Source: a virus
Length of the DNA: 46,484 nt
Reading direction: 5' to 3' (one strand)
IMG/VR virus record: IMGVR_UViG_3300021792_000001
Span: 1 to 46,484 of that record
Shown here: positions 11,844 to 38,169 of the stretch, in pieces
How positions within the stretch are numbered: the first letter of the stretch is position 1
How the letters are laid out: each line of letters begins with the position of its first letter
The notes under the pieces: generated by a model
Told to the model about the DNA's origin: nothing
Seen by the model: only the letters and a program-made list of their open reading frames with translations
Database searches by the model: none
Position numbers and translations under genes: made by a program

Positions 11844-12596
11844 TTAATGAAGCTGTGGATGCTCTTTATCCCACAGGGCTTTGAGCTTGGTTAGGCCTTT
11901 TCCTGTCACGACGGTGGTGACGGATTGTTTTAATCCATGCTCTGGGTGTTGGAAGTTACTGAGCTTTACGTTGAGCAAGCCTTGTTGGATTTTCTCTTGA
12001 TATGGCTCGTTTCGTCGGGAAATCCAGCCAATATTGCGGAGAAAGTCGAATAGGCGGCGCTGACCAGTGCCAATGATTTTAGCGGCTTCCGATACGCTAA
12101 TGGTGTCGGGCGCTCGTTGAACCTGTTCAGCAAATAATGCTTTAGGCTCGTACTCTTGCACCTTTGCTTCTAGGGCTTGCCGCTCTTGCTCCAGCTTTAG
12201 GCGTTGTTCTTCTGACTCCATGGCTAGACGCAAAATATCCATTTTGCTGAGCTGGGTCATATCTGGTGTTTGCGCCTGCAACTGGTCGCGCATCTCAAAG
12301 AAGGCTTTAACCAAGCGCTTCTTAAATTGCTTCACCGTTTCATTGTTGCGCATATAGGTCAACAGAAGCGTTGCTTGCTGTTCGTTTAAGATTGCAACTT
12401 CTCGCTTTTGACCACCCTTACCGTCTTCCCTACCCACTCGCATTTCAAATGCGAGTGGCCCGAAGTCTTCTAAATCTACCGTATTCTGGCGAATTAGCTG
12501 TATAACGGTTTTATGGGTATTGCCCACACCTTCTGCGATGGCCAACGATGTGGTGACCGGACAACCGCTCTCTGATTTCATAACTAATGCTTGCAT
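11844..12596 (-). CDS. Rha/KilAC antirepressor-like protein (250 aa)
   Basis: Residues 10-110 match the phage regulatory protein Rha pattern (NTHKTVIQLIRQN, ALLLTYMRN, VKAFFEMRDQL). A glutamate/lysine-rich coiled linker (about 118-155) is followed by a C-terminal KilAC/ANT-type DNA-binding domain (ISVSEAAKIIGTG, LFDFLRNIGWI). This domain pair is typical of phage antirepressors. It lies 2 bp after the upstream gene and shares a structured RNA leader. Its late-operon position is odd for an immunity regulator, so it is probably part of an independently controlled cassette. Confidence 0.85.
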   Translation of the reverse strand: MQALVMKSESGCPVTTSLAIAEGVGNTHKTVIQLIRQNTVDLEDFGPLAFEMRVGREDGKGGQKREVAILNEQQATLLLTYMRNNETVKQFKKRLVKAFFEMRDQLQAQTPDMTQLSKMDILRLAMESEEQRLKLEQERQALEAKVQEYEPKALFAEQVQRAPDTISVSEAAKIIGTGQRRLFDFLRNIGWISRRNEPYQEKIQQGLLNVKLSNFQHPEHGLKQSVTTVVTGKGLTKLKALWDKEHPQLH

Positions 12597-12598
12597 GG

Positions 12599-13000
12599 TT
12601 ATTCCTCCAGTTTTTCGATTCGATCACGACGCGCGGCGATTTCGTCCCATTGTTGTTGGGCTTGCGCTAGGTCTAGGTAAACATCACAGAATGATGCGGC
12701 TTTGCTAAGTTGCTCTTCGAGGTAGCTAAAGAAACCTACCCAATGCCCTTTGGTGGGCGTTTGGTCTTGAAAGTCGATATCACCAGCGATATGCCCGAGC
12801 AACCCCGTCCCTGCTAAGCTTGGATCGGCTTGAATTTGCAATAGGTAACACGCGGCAAGCTTGCGACCATTGGCACAGGCTAAGCGGTAATTATCGGTGT
12901 GAGGTACATCCCAGTTGGATTCTGGGGCGTTTGCCCCAAGGTGTGAAGCAGTAAAGCGAAAGCGCTTGTTTAGGGTCGGTGTCTTACCTTTAGTGATCAT
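12599..13000 (-). CDS. Phage protein of unknown function upstream of rha (133 aa)
   Basis: ATG 13000 overlaps the stop of a 53-codon leader frame (ATGA) and the gene ends 2 bp before rha. The N-terminal half has a CANGRKLAACYLLQI segment and a glycine-rich GTGLLGHIAGDI stretch. The C-terminal 40 residues form an amphipathic helix rich in Q, A, E and R. There is no transmembrane or enzymatic motif. I know similar genes only as unnamed partners of rha in prophages. Confidence 0.65.
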   Translation of the reverse strand: MITKGKTPTLNKRFRFTASHLGANAPESNWDVPHTDNYRLACANGRKLAACYLLQIQADPSLAGTGLLGHIAGDIDFQDQTPTKGHWVGFFSYLEEQLSKAASFCDVYLDLAQAQQQWDEIAARRDRIEKLEE

Positions 13001-13158
13001 CTTGATCCCCTTACATTTCTCTGAATTTGCCCAATAACTGATTGGGTGTCAGGAGGTTCAGAACGGCTGTAAGAAACCGCGAGTAGCTTTCCCCGAAGGT
13101 GTTTTATGACTACTGCCCTCCCGACGCAACAGGAGTGCTGCCCATAAATTTTGGGCAT
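12997..13158 (-). CDS. 53-codon leader frame over the structured RNA
   Basis: ATG 13158 directly follows the terminator T run, and the stop overlaps the ATG of the next gene. Two cysteines and many basic residues are present, with no recognisable fold. No Shine-Dalgarno other than T-rich sequence precedes it, so translation is doubtful. If translated, it would couple the leader to the downstream genes, as icd couples to ant in P1. The underlying RNA structure explains the sequence better. Confidence 0.35.
   Translation of the reverse strand: MPKIYGQHSCCVGRAVVIKHLRGKLLAVSYSRSEPPDTQSVIGQIQRNVRGSR
13048..13125 (-). ncRNA. Three-way-junction leader RNA of the rha cassette
   Basis: The closing stem pairs GTCGGGAGG (13125-13117) with CCTCCTGAC (13056-13048): 9 pairs, one wobble. 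Hairpin A (13113-13083) pairs GTAGT with GCTAC around a CCTTCGGG core. Hairpin B (13079-13064) pairs CGGT with GCCG. The same topology, the same upstream CCTGTT box and the same offset from an upstream terminator occur at 37907-37986, with different stem sequences. Confidence 0.6.
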
Positions 13159-13184
13159 AAAAAAGCCAACGCTGACGGGGTTGG
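13159..13184 (-). terminator. Intrinsic terminator before the rha leader RNA
   Basis: The minus strand has CCAAC-CCCGTCAGC-GTTGG then C and six T. The T run is followed at once by ATG and the folded leader, the same order as at 38019-38043. Confidence 0.75.
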
Positions 13185-13265
13185 TTGCTCATCCGCTTAC
13201 AAGAGGTTCTGACGCCTCAAAACGGATAGTAGATCAGGAAAAGCGAGATTGCAAATAGCGGGTAA

Positions 13266-37141: not shown

Positions 37142-37557
37142 GCCTCACCCCCAAAGCCATACGCCTGCATCATAAGCTTACGAGCACGCTCTGTGCGGAT
37201 TGCCAGCAGGTGTCGATCTGCCTTGGCGAACACTTGCTTAGGCGTGGCAGTCTTGGTGAACACCATCATGATCTTTAAAAACTCATACGCGGAATAAACA
37301 TGCAGATCATTGTCATACAAATTTTTAACGCGCTGAACGTAGCATGGCGTATTTTTCCATGGCTCATTTGGTCGCATATGAACACGTCCAAATCGGCTAG
37401 ATTTTAGGTGATCACAGTGTTTTAGATCACAATTGTGCAGAATCGATGACTCGATCGTTAATACATGCTCAGGCAAACAAAGCTCACCACAGTGCGGGAG
37501 AATGCGCAGATACTGATCTGCGCGTTTTGATAATTTTTTAAGGATGCGTAGATTCAT
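37138..37557 (-). CDS. Unknown early protein (139 aa)
   Basis: ATG 37557 follows GGAGGTG and overlaps the upstream stop (ATGA). Basic protein with several cysteines and histidines (LPHCGELCLPEHV, NCDLKHCDH), possibly a zinc-binding fold, then a basic helical C-terminus. It resembles small Vibrio phage regulators only in general character. Confidence 0.55.
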   Translation of the reverse strand: MNLRILKKLSKRADQYLRILPHCGELCLPEHVLTIESSILHNCDLKHCDHLKSSRFGRVHMRPNEPWKNTPCYVQRVKNLYDNDLHVYSAYEFLKIMMVFTKTATPKQVFAKADRHLLAIRTERARKLMMQAYGFGGEA

Positions 37558-37844
37558 ACCCACACCTCCATCACGTCACCGGATAGAGAAGGATTTTGCA
37601 GGGCGTAGACGCTGCATTTTGACTTGCGACCATTGTAAAACGGCGCGATATAACCTTCGCGCTGTAGCTCATCGATAGCCACGCGAACCTTATCAACGGA
37701 AATCTTGGATAATTCAGAAATTTCCTGTTCGTCCAACAGGATGCGAGGGGAACCGCCGAATACAGGCAGTTGTTTGATAGCGTTGCGAACTCGCTTAGCG
37801 TAAACGCTTAGGCGATCGTCAACCAATAGGCGTAATTGTGCCAT
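37554..37844 (-). CDS. Winged-helix protein after the Ash-like leader (96 aa)
   Basis: ATG 37844 with GGAG 8 nt upstream is the best start. Residues 40-75 form a winged-helix (DEQEISELSKISVDKVRVAIDELQREGYI). An in-frame extension reaches back to ATG 38120, but that part is dominated by an RNA fold and a terminator and reads like Ash/Icd-type frames. The gene is the first of the tightly overlapped early operon. It may be a Cro-like or replication regulator. Confidence 0.68.
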   Translation of the reverse strand: MAQLRLLVDDRLSVYAKRVRNAIKQLPVFGGSPRILLDEQEISELSKISVDKVRVAIDELQREGYIAPFYNGRKSKCSVYALQNPSLSGDVMEVWV

Positions 37845-37906
37845 GGTGAGTCTCCGAATGTGTTTTTTCAGGGACCACCAAATCGAAGTGCGAATTTCAA
37901 TAGGGT

Positions 37907-37986
37907 GGTCGGTCAAGTGGAGTTTCGCACTATCGGCACACAAACGGAAAGCCGACCTACCCGAAGGTAGCTCCACCCAACCGACC
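37907..37986 (-). ncRNA. Three-way-junction RNA in the Ash-like leader
   Basis: The closing stem pairs 37986-37971 with 37922-37907: 16 consecutive pairs, 13 Watson-Crick and 3 G-U, no bulge. Hairpin A, CTACC-TTCG-GGTAG (37970-37957), starts at the next base. Hairpin B, GTCGGC/GCCGAT with a 13-nt loop (37956-37932), follows without linker. A 9-nt single strand (37931-37923) leads back to the closing stem. A second copy with the same topology lies at 13048-13125. Confidence 0.75.
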
Positions 37987-38018
37987 ATAACAGGTAGGCA
38001 CAGGCGTGCAGCAGACAT

Positions 38019-38043
38019 AAAAAAACCGCTATTAAGGGCGGTT
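38019..38043 (-). terminator. Intrinsic terminator in the early operon leader
   Basis: AACCGC-CCTTAATA-GCGGTT followed by a T run on the minus strand, inside the Ash-like frame. It comes 33 nt before the three-way-junction RNA and stops early transcription before the replication genes unless it is suppressed. Confidence 0.85.
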
Positions 38044-38169
38044 CGTCTGCCCGTTTGTGAATTATCCGGAGTGCGAGTCCAGGCTGCCGATTTTGCGGCA
38101 ACGGTTAAATTATTGCTCATTGCTCTGTACCTGTCAAAAATTTTACAGATACATCGATTTATTAGTCTC

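What the first reader, a model, noticed from the sequence alone, without database searches (positions are those of the whole stretch)
13048..13184. Second copy of the same RNA class before the Rha antirepressor cassette
The leader at 13048-13125 shows the same order as 37907-38043: terminator, T run, ATG, small hairpin, CCTGTT box, closing stem, hairpin A with CCTTCGGG, hairpin B, single strand, closing arm. The offset from ATG to the closing stem is 33 nt here and 32 nt there. Stem sequences differ but stay paired, and the encoded peptides are not alike. So RNA structure, not protein, is what is shared. Two loci in one phage with one RNA family point to a common trans-acting regulator.
Basis: seen in the sequence. 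Interest (0 to 1): 0.85.

Follow-up and report, generated by a model that had tools for sequence, protein, structure and literature searches.

The report
C4-style antisense switch controlling prophage antirepressor
In front of a prophage antirepressor gene sits a small RNA of a known but functionally unassigned family (sRNA-Xcc1), and its loops match its own gene's ribosome-binding site the way the phage P1 immunity RNA C4 does, so this widespread RNA, usually described as virulence-linked, is most likely a portable off-switch for antirepressor and toxin genes.

Summary
The RNA is real and on the minus strand: 13125-13040 scores 58.2 bits against Rfam RF02221 sRNA-Xcc1 (cut-off 53). The comparison locus, 37992-37901, is a true C4 antisense RNA (62.8 bits) behind an isrK leader. 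They share an architecture but are different RNA families. The 'common trans-acting regulator' is not supported: each RNA carries its own two-part antisense code (a'/b'), which pairs with its own leader (a1/b1) and its own gene's Shine-Dalgarno region (a2/b2); neither fits the other's sites.

Across 40 loci, own pairing far exceeds mismatched pairing (0 of 10,000 permutations at leader and at start site). The a2 block covers or abuts the SD in 29 of 32 scorable cases. I read sRNA-Xcc1 as a C4-type switch that blocks translation of the downstream gene, here a 133-aa ORF plus a Rha/KilAC antirepressor. It also precedes AntA and KilA-N antirepressors and, in Xanthomonadaceae, SymE toxin genes. 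Papers I could search call sRNA-Xcc1 a virulence or integron sRNA; none mentions an antirepressor. The C4 model does not match these RNAs, so this is a new variant of a known kind. No experiment was run here.

The parts
13226..13254 (-). weak promoter-like TTGCAA-N17-TACTAT upstream of the leader
   Evidence: read from sequence; 8 of 12 consensus bases, below the scanner's threshold, so tentative
13196..13212 (-). a1/b1 target in the leader: 5'-UCAGAAC (b1) ... UGUAAG (a1)-3'; b1 lies in a predicted hairpin loop GAGG/CCUC
   Evidence: 13 Watson-Crick pairs to the RNA's loops; 5/3000 shuffles as good; fold
13159..13184 (-). terminator-like hairpin CCAAC/GTTGG followed by T6, then a conserved RTGYC motif
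   Evidence: sequence; conserved with the leader in Rac-SA53, VaK and a Stx-like E. coli phage; RTGYC tally
13048..13125 (-). sRNA-Xcc1 type RNA (RF02221; the model match extends to 13040): 9-bp closing stem, hairpin A with internal loop, hairpin B, single strand, then ACC
   Evidence: 58.2 bits, cut-off 53; covariation of the family
13067..13073 (-). a' antisense stretch CUUACAG in the loop of hairpin B
13058..13064 (-). b' antisense stretch GUUCUGA (end of hairpin B and single strand)
13010..13025 (-). a2/b2 target UUCAGA ... UGUAAG, overlapping the SD AAGGGG (13012-13007) of the next ORF
   Evidence: 12 Watson-Crick pairs; 64/3000 shuffles as good alone, 0/10000 across loci
12599..13000 (-). 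first gene of the cassette, 133 aa, unknown function (weak phrog_12849 match)
11844..12596 (-). Rha + KilAC (ANT) antirepressor, 250 aa
   Evidence: PF09669 and PF03374; phrog_63 anti-repressor Ant
12997..13158 (-). 53-aa frame running through the RNA and overlapping the next start codon (ATGA); not conserved as a peptide
38109..38137 (-). promoter TTGACA-N17-AATAAT of the comparison cassette
   Evidence: 11 of 12 bases
38019..38102 (-). isrK-type leader with terminator; b1/a1 = UCGCACU ... CACAAACGG at 38076-38051
   Evidence: RF01394 50.7 bits; 16 pairs, 1/3000 shuffles
37901..37992 (-). C4 antisense RNA (comparison locus)
   Evidence: RF01695 62.8 bits, cut-off 45
37853..37894 (-). a2/b2 region of the C4 cassette: UUCGCACU (37894-37887) and CACAUUCGGA (37862-37853, two mismatches) at the SD of ORF 37844-37554
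37554..37844 (-). first gene of the C4 cassette, 96 aa, weakly like a replication helicase loader; upstream of replication genes

Best explanation
13125-13048 is the antisense repressor RNA of its own cassette and works like C4 of phages P1/P7. A transcript starting near 13225 runs through the a1/b1 leader and a leaky terminator. The RNA is cut from the read-through product, probably by RNase P at its 5' end. Its loop a' (CUUACAG) and strand b' (GUUCUGA) pair with a2/b2 (13025-13010), covering the SD of the first gene and so silencing that gene and the Rha/KilAC antirepressor behind it, which keeps the prophage quiet. The same a'/b' also pair with a1/b1 in the leader; by analogy with IsrK of Gifsy-1 the short terminated leader would titrate the RNA and turn the cassette on. 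The C4 RNA at 37992 does the same for its own operon with a different code. Shown by sequence: RNA family, structure, both complementary target pairs, their covariation and the SD overlap. Inferred: processing, silencing, titration, role in lysogeny.
For: Family match above cut-off and covarying structure. Across 40 loci (39 Xcc1-type and the window's C4), two-block complementarity to the own leader averages 12.7 pairs against 8.3 to other loci's leaders, and to the own start region 11.1 against 7.2; 0/10000 permutations for each. The a2 block overlaps or abuts the SD in 29 of 32 scorable cases, median 8 nt from the start codon. Close relatives show compensatory changes: in M. spartinae L113 b' is GUUUCGA, b1 UCGAAAC and b2 UUCGGAA, where the window has GUUCUGA, UCAGAAC and UUCAGAG. 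Within 46 kb the minus strand holds only these two sites that include both the b and the UGUAAG block. Downstream genes are antirepressors in unrelated phages: AntA in Rac-SA53, KilA-N in Vibrio VaK, 'phage antirepressor Ant' in E. coli. Gifsy-1 isrK-orf45-anrP, tested experimentally, is the same plan with a C4 RNA in orf45 (PMC4825925). In E. coli EDL933 sRNA-Xcc1 has 40,293 reads and ribosome coverage 0.02, C4_2 108,363 reads and 0.06 (PMC5331693). Most RNAs show a closing stem followed by RCC, as RNase P substrates do.
Against: No expression, processing or reporter data for this prophage. The window's own a2/b2 match is only moderately improbable taken alone (64/3000 shuffles). The C4 covariance model does not match these RNAs even at E 10, so common descent with C4 is unproven. 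An 83-86-nt Xanthomonadaceae subtype has a1/b1 but no a2/b2 (own 8.1 against other 7.8), so not every member can act on an SD. The promoter and terminator at 13254-13159 are below the scanner's thresholds. In Gifsy-1, extra STnc1160 did not counteract IsrK (PMC4825925).
Confidence: 0.85

Rival explanations
1. One reading: two copies of one RNA element that a single phage factor binds to control read-through at both terminators.
For: Shared order of elements and similar spacing, 33 and 32 nt; both have a conserved terminator plus T-run plus RTGYC motif.
Against: Different Rfam families with no cross-match. The variable loops are locus-specific and match the own targets; neither RNA has a site at the other locus. 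Other phages carry either family alone (Rac-SA53 and VaK: Xcc1 without C4).
Confidence: 0.05
2. The RNA acts mainly on transcription, as P4 CI RNA is reported to do with seqA and seqC: pairing with the leader promotes premature termination, and SD pairing is secondary.
For: a1/b1 in the leader is at least as well matched as a2/b2; the 83-86-nt subtype keeps only a1/b1; the IsrK paper proposes a CI-like role for STnc1160 (PMC4825925).
Against: The a2 block sits on the SD in 29 of 32 cases, which termination alone does not need.
Confidence: 0.25
3. The conserved element is a translated leader peptide (orf45-like) coupled to the next gene; RNA folding is incidental.
For: A 53-aa frame runs through the RNA and overlaps the next start (ATGA); orf45-anrP coupling was shown in Gifsy-1 (PMC4825925).
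Against: ATG, GTG and GCG alternate at that site and only 29 of 58 frames are open through the RNA; base pairs covary; the E. coli homologue has ribosome coverage 0.02.
Confidence: 0.04
4. A host-targeting virulence or RNA-interference sRNA, as suggested for sRNA-Xcc1 in Xanthomonas and Xylella.
For: Control of sRNA-Xcc1 by HrpG/HrpX is reported (as cited in PMC12444791 and PMC12189769).
Against: Every prophage or symE cassette examined carries its own matching targets next to the RNA; the present host is a marine Marinomonas-type phage. It remains possible as an additional role.
Confidence: 0.04

Closest known systems
C4 antisense RNA of phages P1/P7 (Rfam RF01695, with c4-a1b1 RF03163)
   Same: About 80 nt; closing stem with two hairpins; loop a' and strand b' complementary to an upstream a1/b1 and to a2/b2 at the SD; upstream of an antirepressor; RNase P-like ends
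   Different: Covariance model does not match; shorter closing stem; hairpin A has a conserved internal loop; leader is neither isrK nor c4-a1b1 by model
isrK-orf45(STnc1160)-anrP of Salmonella prophage Gifsy-1
   Same: Terminated leader carrying the target, read-through, processed RNA, antirepressor; orf45 overlaps the RNA; C4 found there
   Different: Gifsy-1 uses the C4-type RNA; the window's 13 kb locus uses the Xcc1-type RNA. The window's second locus (37.9 kb) is the close parallel but precedes replication genes
sRNA-Xcc1 (Rfam RF02221) of Xanthomonas
   Same: Member by covariance model
   Different: Described as integron-encoded and virulence-regulated with no target; here it sits in a prophage antirepressor cassette and has identifiable targets
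P4 CI RNA with seqA/seqC
   Same: Processed antisense RNA with targets upstream and downstream (as described in PMC4825925)
   Different: Acts by transcription termination on replication genes; not compared by model here
SymE/SymR type I toxin-antitoxin
   Same: SymE downstream of the 88-nt Xcc1 RNA in Xanthomonadaceae
   Different: SymR is antisense on the opposite strand; here the RNA lies upstream on the same strand with C4-type targets

Membership tests
sRNA-Xcc1 (RF02221) | Covariance-model score at or above 53 bits | tested here: met
   58.2 bits at 13125-13040
C4 antisense RNA (RF01695) | Covariance-model match at the 13 kb locus | tested here: not met
   no match at E up to 1 in the window, none on 13 related Xcc1 loci at E up to 10; the 37.9 kb locus does match (62.8 bits)
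C4-type mechanism | a'/b' complementary to upstream a1/b1 and to a2/b2 at the SD of the downstream gene | tested here: met
C4-type mechanism | Closing stem plus two hairpins, with covariation | tested here: met
C4-type mechanism | 5' processing by RNase P | tested here: inconclusive
   stem followed by RCC in most members, ACC in the window; cleavage itself not testable
C4-type mechanism | Downstream antirepressor | tested here: met
   PF09669/PF03374 as second gene
C4-type mechanism | Repression in trans and superinfection immunity | not testable with these tools
   needs reporter and immunity assays
isrK leader (RF01394) | Covariance-model match of the leader at 13 kb | tested here: not met
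   no match; the 38 kb leader matches at 50.7 bits
SymR-type antitoxin RNA | Opposite-strand overlap with the toxin mRNA | tested here: not met
   RNA lies upstream on the same strand as symE in the 88-nt loci examined
P4 CI RNA | Termination control through seqA/seqC pairing | not tested
   no model or assay used

The most novel reading that the evidence does not exclude
sRNA-Xcc1 is a second, sequence-unrelated family of C4-type RNA switches: a reprogrammable antisense module that moves between prophages, chromosomes and integron cassettes and silences whatever gene lies behind it (antirepressors, SymE toxins, unknown small proteins), with two or three mutually blind switches in one prophage. 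The virulence role given to it in plant pathogens would then be secondary.
Probability: 0.75. Interest if true: 0.72.

Novelty: new variant of a known kind. Interest (0 to 1): 0.62.

Why it matters
It gives a concrete, testable mechanism to an RNA family with no assigned target that automatic annotation reports by the dozen (up to 14 copies per Xanthomonadaceae genome; 15 copies reported in an Aeromonas salmonicida genome) and that papers read as virulence- or plant-targeting. It predicts immunity groups from 14 bases of sequence, explains why the 'orf45' nucleotide sequence is conserved but its peptide is not, and suggests that symE cassettes of integrons are toxins held in check by a phage-style RNA.

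Tried and rejected
Plain duplex energies between the whole 3' half of the RNA and flanks separated own from other only weakly, because the GC-rich stem arms pair with everything; replaced by a two-block exact-pair score on the loop region. The 133-aa protein was a poor bait: one relative only in viral contigs and none in phages. Peptide conservation of the 53-aa frame: rejected. One regulator for both loci: rejected. Direct descent from C4: tested by cross-scoring, no support. A downstream SD target for the 83-86-nt subtype: searched to +500, not found. My C4 scoring window was badly placed and was redone. The 2011 sRNA-Xcc1 paper (PMC3256417) is not held, so what it says is known here only through later papers.

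Full report
What is there. The window is an IMG/VR virus record of 46,484 bases; its nearest relatives are prophages of Marinomonas. Everything of interest lies on the minus strand. Rfam at gathering thresholds finds sRNA-Xcc1 (RF02221, 58.2 bits) at 13125-13040, C4 antisense RNA (RF01695, 62.8 bits) at 37992-37901 and isrK (RF01394, 50.7 bits) at 38102-38019. The fold of the 13 kb RNA is closing stem, hairpin A, hairpin B, single strand; alone it is not remarkable (z -1.55), but 36 family members covary (94% of cells paired; 43 cells with double changes against 11.6 shuffled; 0/500; slid controls 43-56% paired).

Same plan, two families. The 13 kb and 38 kb RNAs are built on the same plan but belong to different Rfam families. 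The Xcc1 model finds no C4 RNA, and the C4 model finds no Xcc1 RNA even at E 10 over 14 Xcc1 loci. Xcc1-type RNAs carry a conserved internal loop in hairpin A (AUAMAA...GGGRAA; A19, T20, A23, A24, A26, A37 invariant) that C4 lacks. So the RNA is a member of RF02221 and not of RF01695, whatever its mechanism.

The antisense code. The loop of hairpin B holds CUUACAG (a') and the following strand GUUCUGA (b'). The leader holds UCAGAAC...UGUAAG (13212-13196) and the start region holds UUCAGA...UGUAAGGGG (13025-13007), the latter including the SD AAGGGG of the 133-aa ORF. In 46 kb the minus strand has only these two sites containing both blocks; the other chance matches listed lack the UGUAAG block. 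Taken alone the matches are improbable at 5/3000 (leader) and 64/3000 (start region) shuffles. The strong evidence is comparative. Across 40 loci, whose RNAs have widely different loops, own complementarity averages 12.7 (leader) and 11.1 (start region) pairs, against 8.3 and 7.2 with other loci's flanks and 8.7 and 7.6 with the reversed own flank; no permutation of 10,000 reached the observed sum at either site. The a2 block abuts or overlaps an SD in 29 of 32 scorable loci, median 8 nt from the start codon. Near relatives show double compensation: M. spartinae L113 changes b' from GUUCUGA to GUUUCGA and both targets follow (UCGAAAC, UUCGGAA).

What lies downstream. The window cassette is a 133-aa protein of unknown function followed by a Rha plus KilAC antirepressor. 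In unrelated phages the RNA precedes AntA (Rac-SA53), KilA-N (Vibrio VaK) and 'phage antirepressor Ant' in E. coli. In Xanthomonadaceae 98 of 297 sampled genomes carry the RNA, up to 14 copies. The 88-nt subtype precedes SymE-type proteins (PF08845 confirmed for the representative scanned) and has both targets (own 14.1 and 12.1 pairs against 10.7 and 9.0); a published survey independently notes sRNA-Xcc1 upstream of symE as the most widespread Xanthomonas integron cassette, without proposing a target (PMC12444791). SymE-like genes also follow Xcc1 RNAs outside that family (L117, confirmed; L119, L142 and L143 by eye). In the Gammaproteobacteria sample 26 of 369 genomes have a match, in 14 control genomes none.

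Mechanism. The plan matches Gifsy-1 isrK-orf45-anrP, where C4 lies in orf45 and where the paper reports leaky termination, a processed stable RNA (STnc1160), activation of anrP translation by short IsrK in trans, and complementarity between IsrK and STnc1160 (PMC4825925). It also matches C4 as described for P1/P7: RNase P processing, and a' and b' loops acting at the ribosome-binding site (PMC5320573). In E. coli EDL933 both RNA types are abundant and hardly touched by ribosomes (PMC5331693). The closing stem is followed by RCC in most members. I infer that the Xcc1 RNA is cut from the leader transcript, silences its own cassette, and is titrated by the terminated leader. Shown: family, structure, targets, covariation, SD overlap. 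Inferred: processing, silencing, titration, role in lysogeny.

One phage, two codes. The C4 RNA at 37992 has its own code (UCGCACU...CACAAACGG in the leader, 16 pairs, 1/3000 shuffles; TTCGCACT and CACATTCGGA near the next SD, the latter with two mismatches) and precedes replication genes. Neither RNA has a site at the other's cassette. The same combination occurs in other phages: two Xcc1 plus one sub-threshold C4 in M. piezotolerans, one plus one in M. spartinae, two plus one in a Stx-like E. coli phage. Two loci in one phage thus point to two independent switches, the opposite of a common regulator.

Limits. Nothing here is experimental for this phage. An 83-86-nt Xanthomonadaceae subtype has an excellent a1/b1 (13.7 pairs against 9.2) and no a2/b2 (8.1 against 7.8); its target is unexplained. 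Literature was limited to open-licence papers; no paper there holds both 'sRNA-Xcc1' and 'antirepressor', and the original 2011 paper is not held. Rfam lists RF02221 with no clan while C4 is in CL00128.

Noticed in passing
L146-L154, L157 (downstream of match at 1501): In Xanthomonadaceae the 88-nt sRNA-Xcc1 RNA precedes SymE-type genes and carries matching targets in the leader and near the symE SD, implying C4-type control of a toxin gene.
   Followed up: yes
L155-L175 (83-86-nt RNAs): A multi-copy Xanthomonadaceae subtype pairs perfectly with its own leader but has no target at the downstream SD; the downstream ORFs are mostly ~90-aa proteins without a Pfam match (one, L162, is SymE-like).
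   Followed up: partly
L176:34316-34131 (Gifsy-1): orf45/STnc1160 of the experimentally studied isrK-anrP locus is a C4 RNA (69 bits); the passages of the paper I read compare it to P4 CI RNA.
   Followed up: yes
L106 and L108 (E. coli phage PPwrbA_EH2201): Two Xcc1 RNAs about 450 nt apart, each before an AntA-type antirepressor gene and with different a'/b' codes, plus a C4 RNA elsewhere in the same phage.
   Followed up: partly
window 13164-13154 and relatives: The T-run after the leader terminator is followed by a conserved RTGYC/GCGYC motif that is not a start codon; its role is unknown.
   Followed up: partly
L116 (M. piezotolerans): A sub-threshold orphan Xcc1 RNA lacking the leader but keeping a2/b2-like sequence before a KilA-N-like gene.
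   Followed up: no
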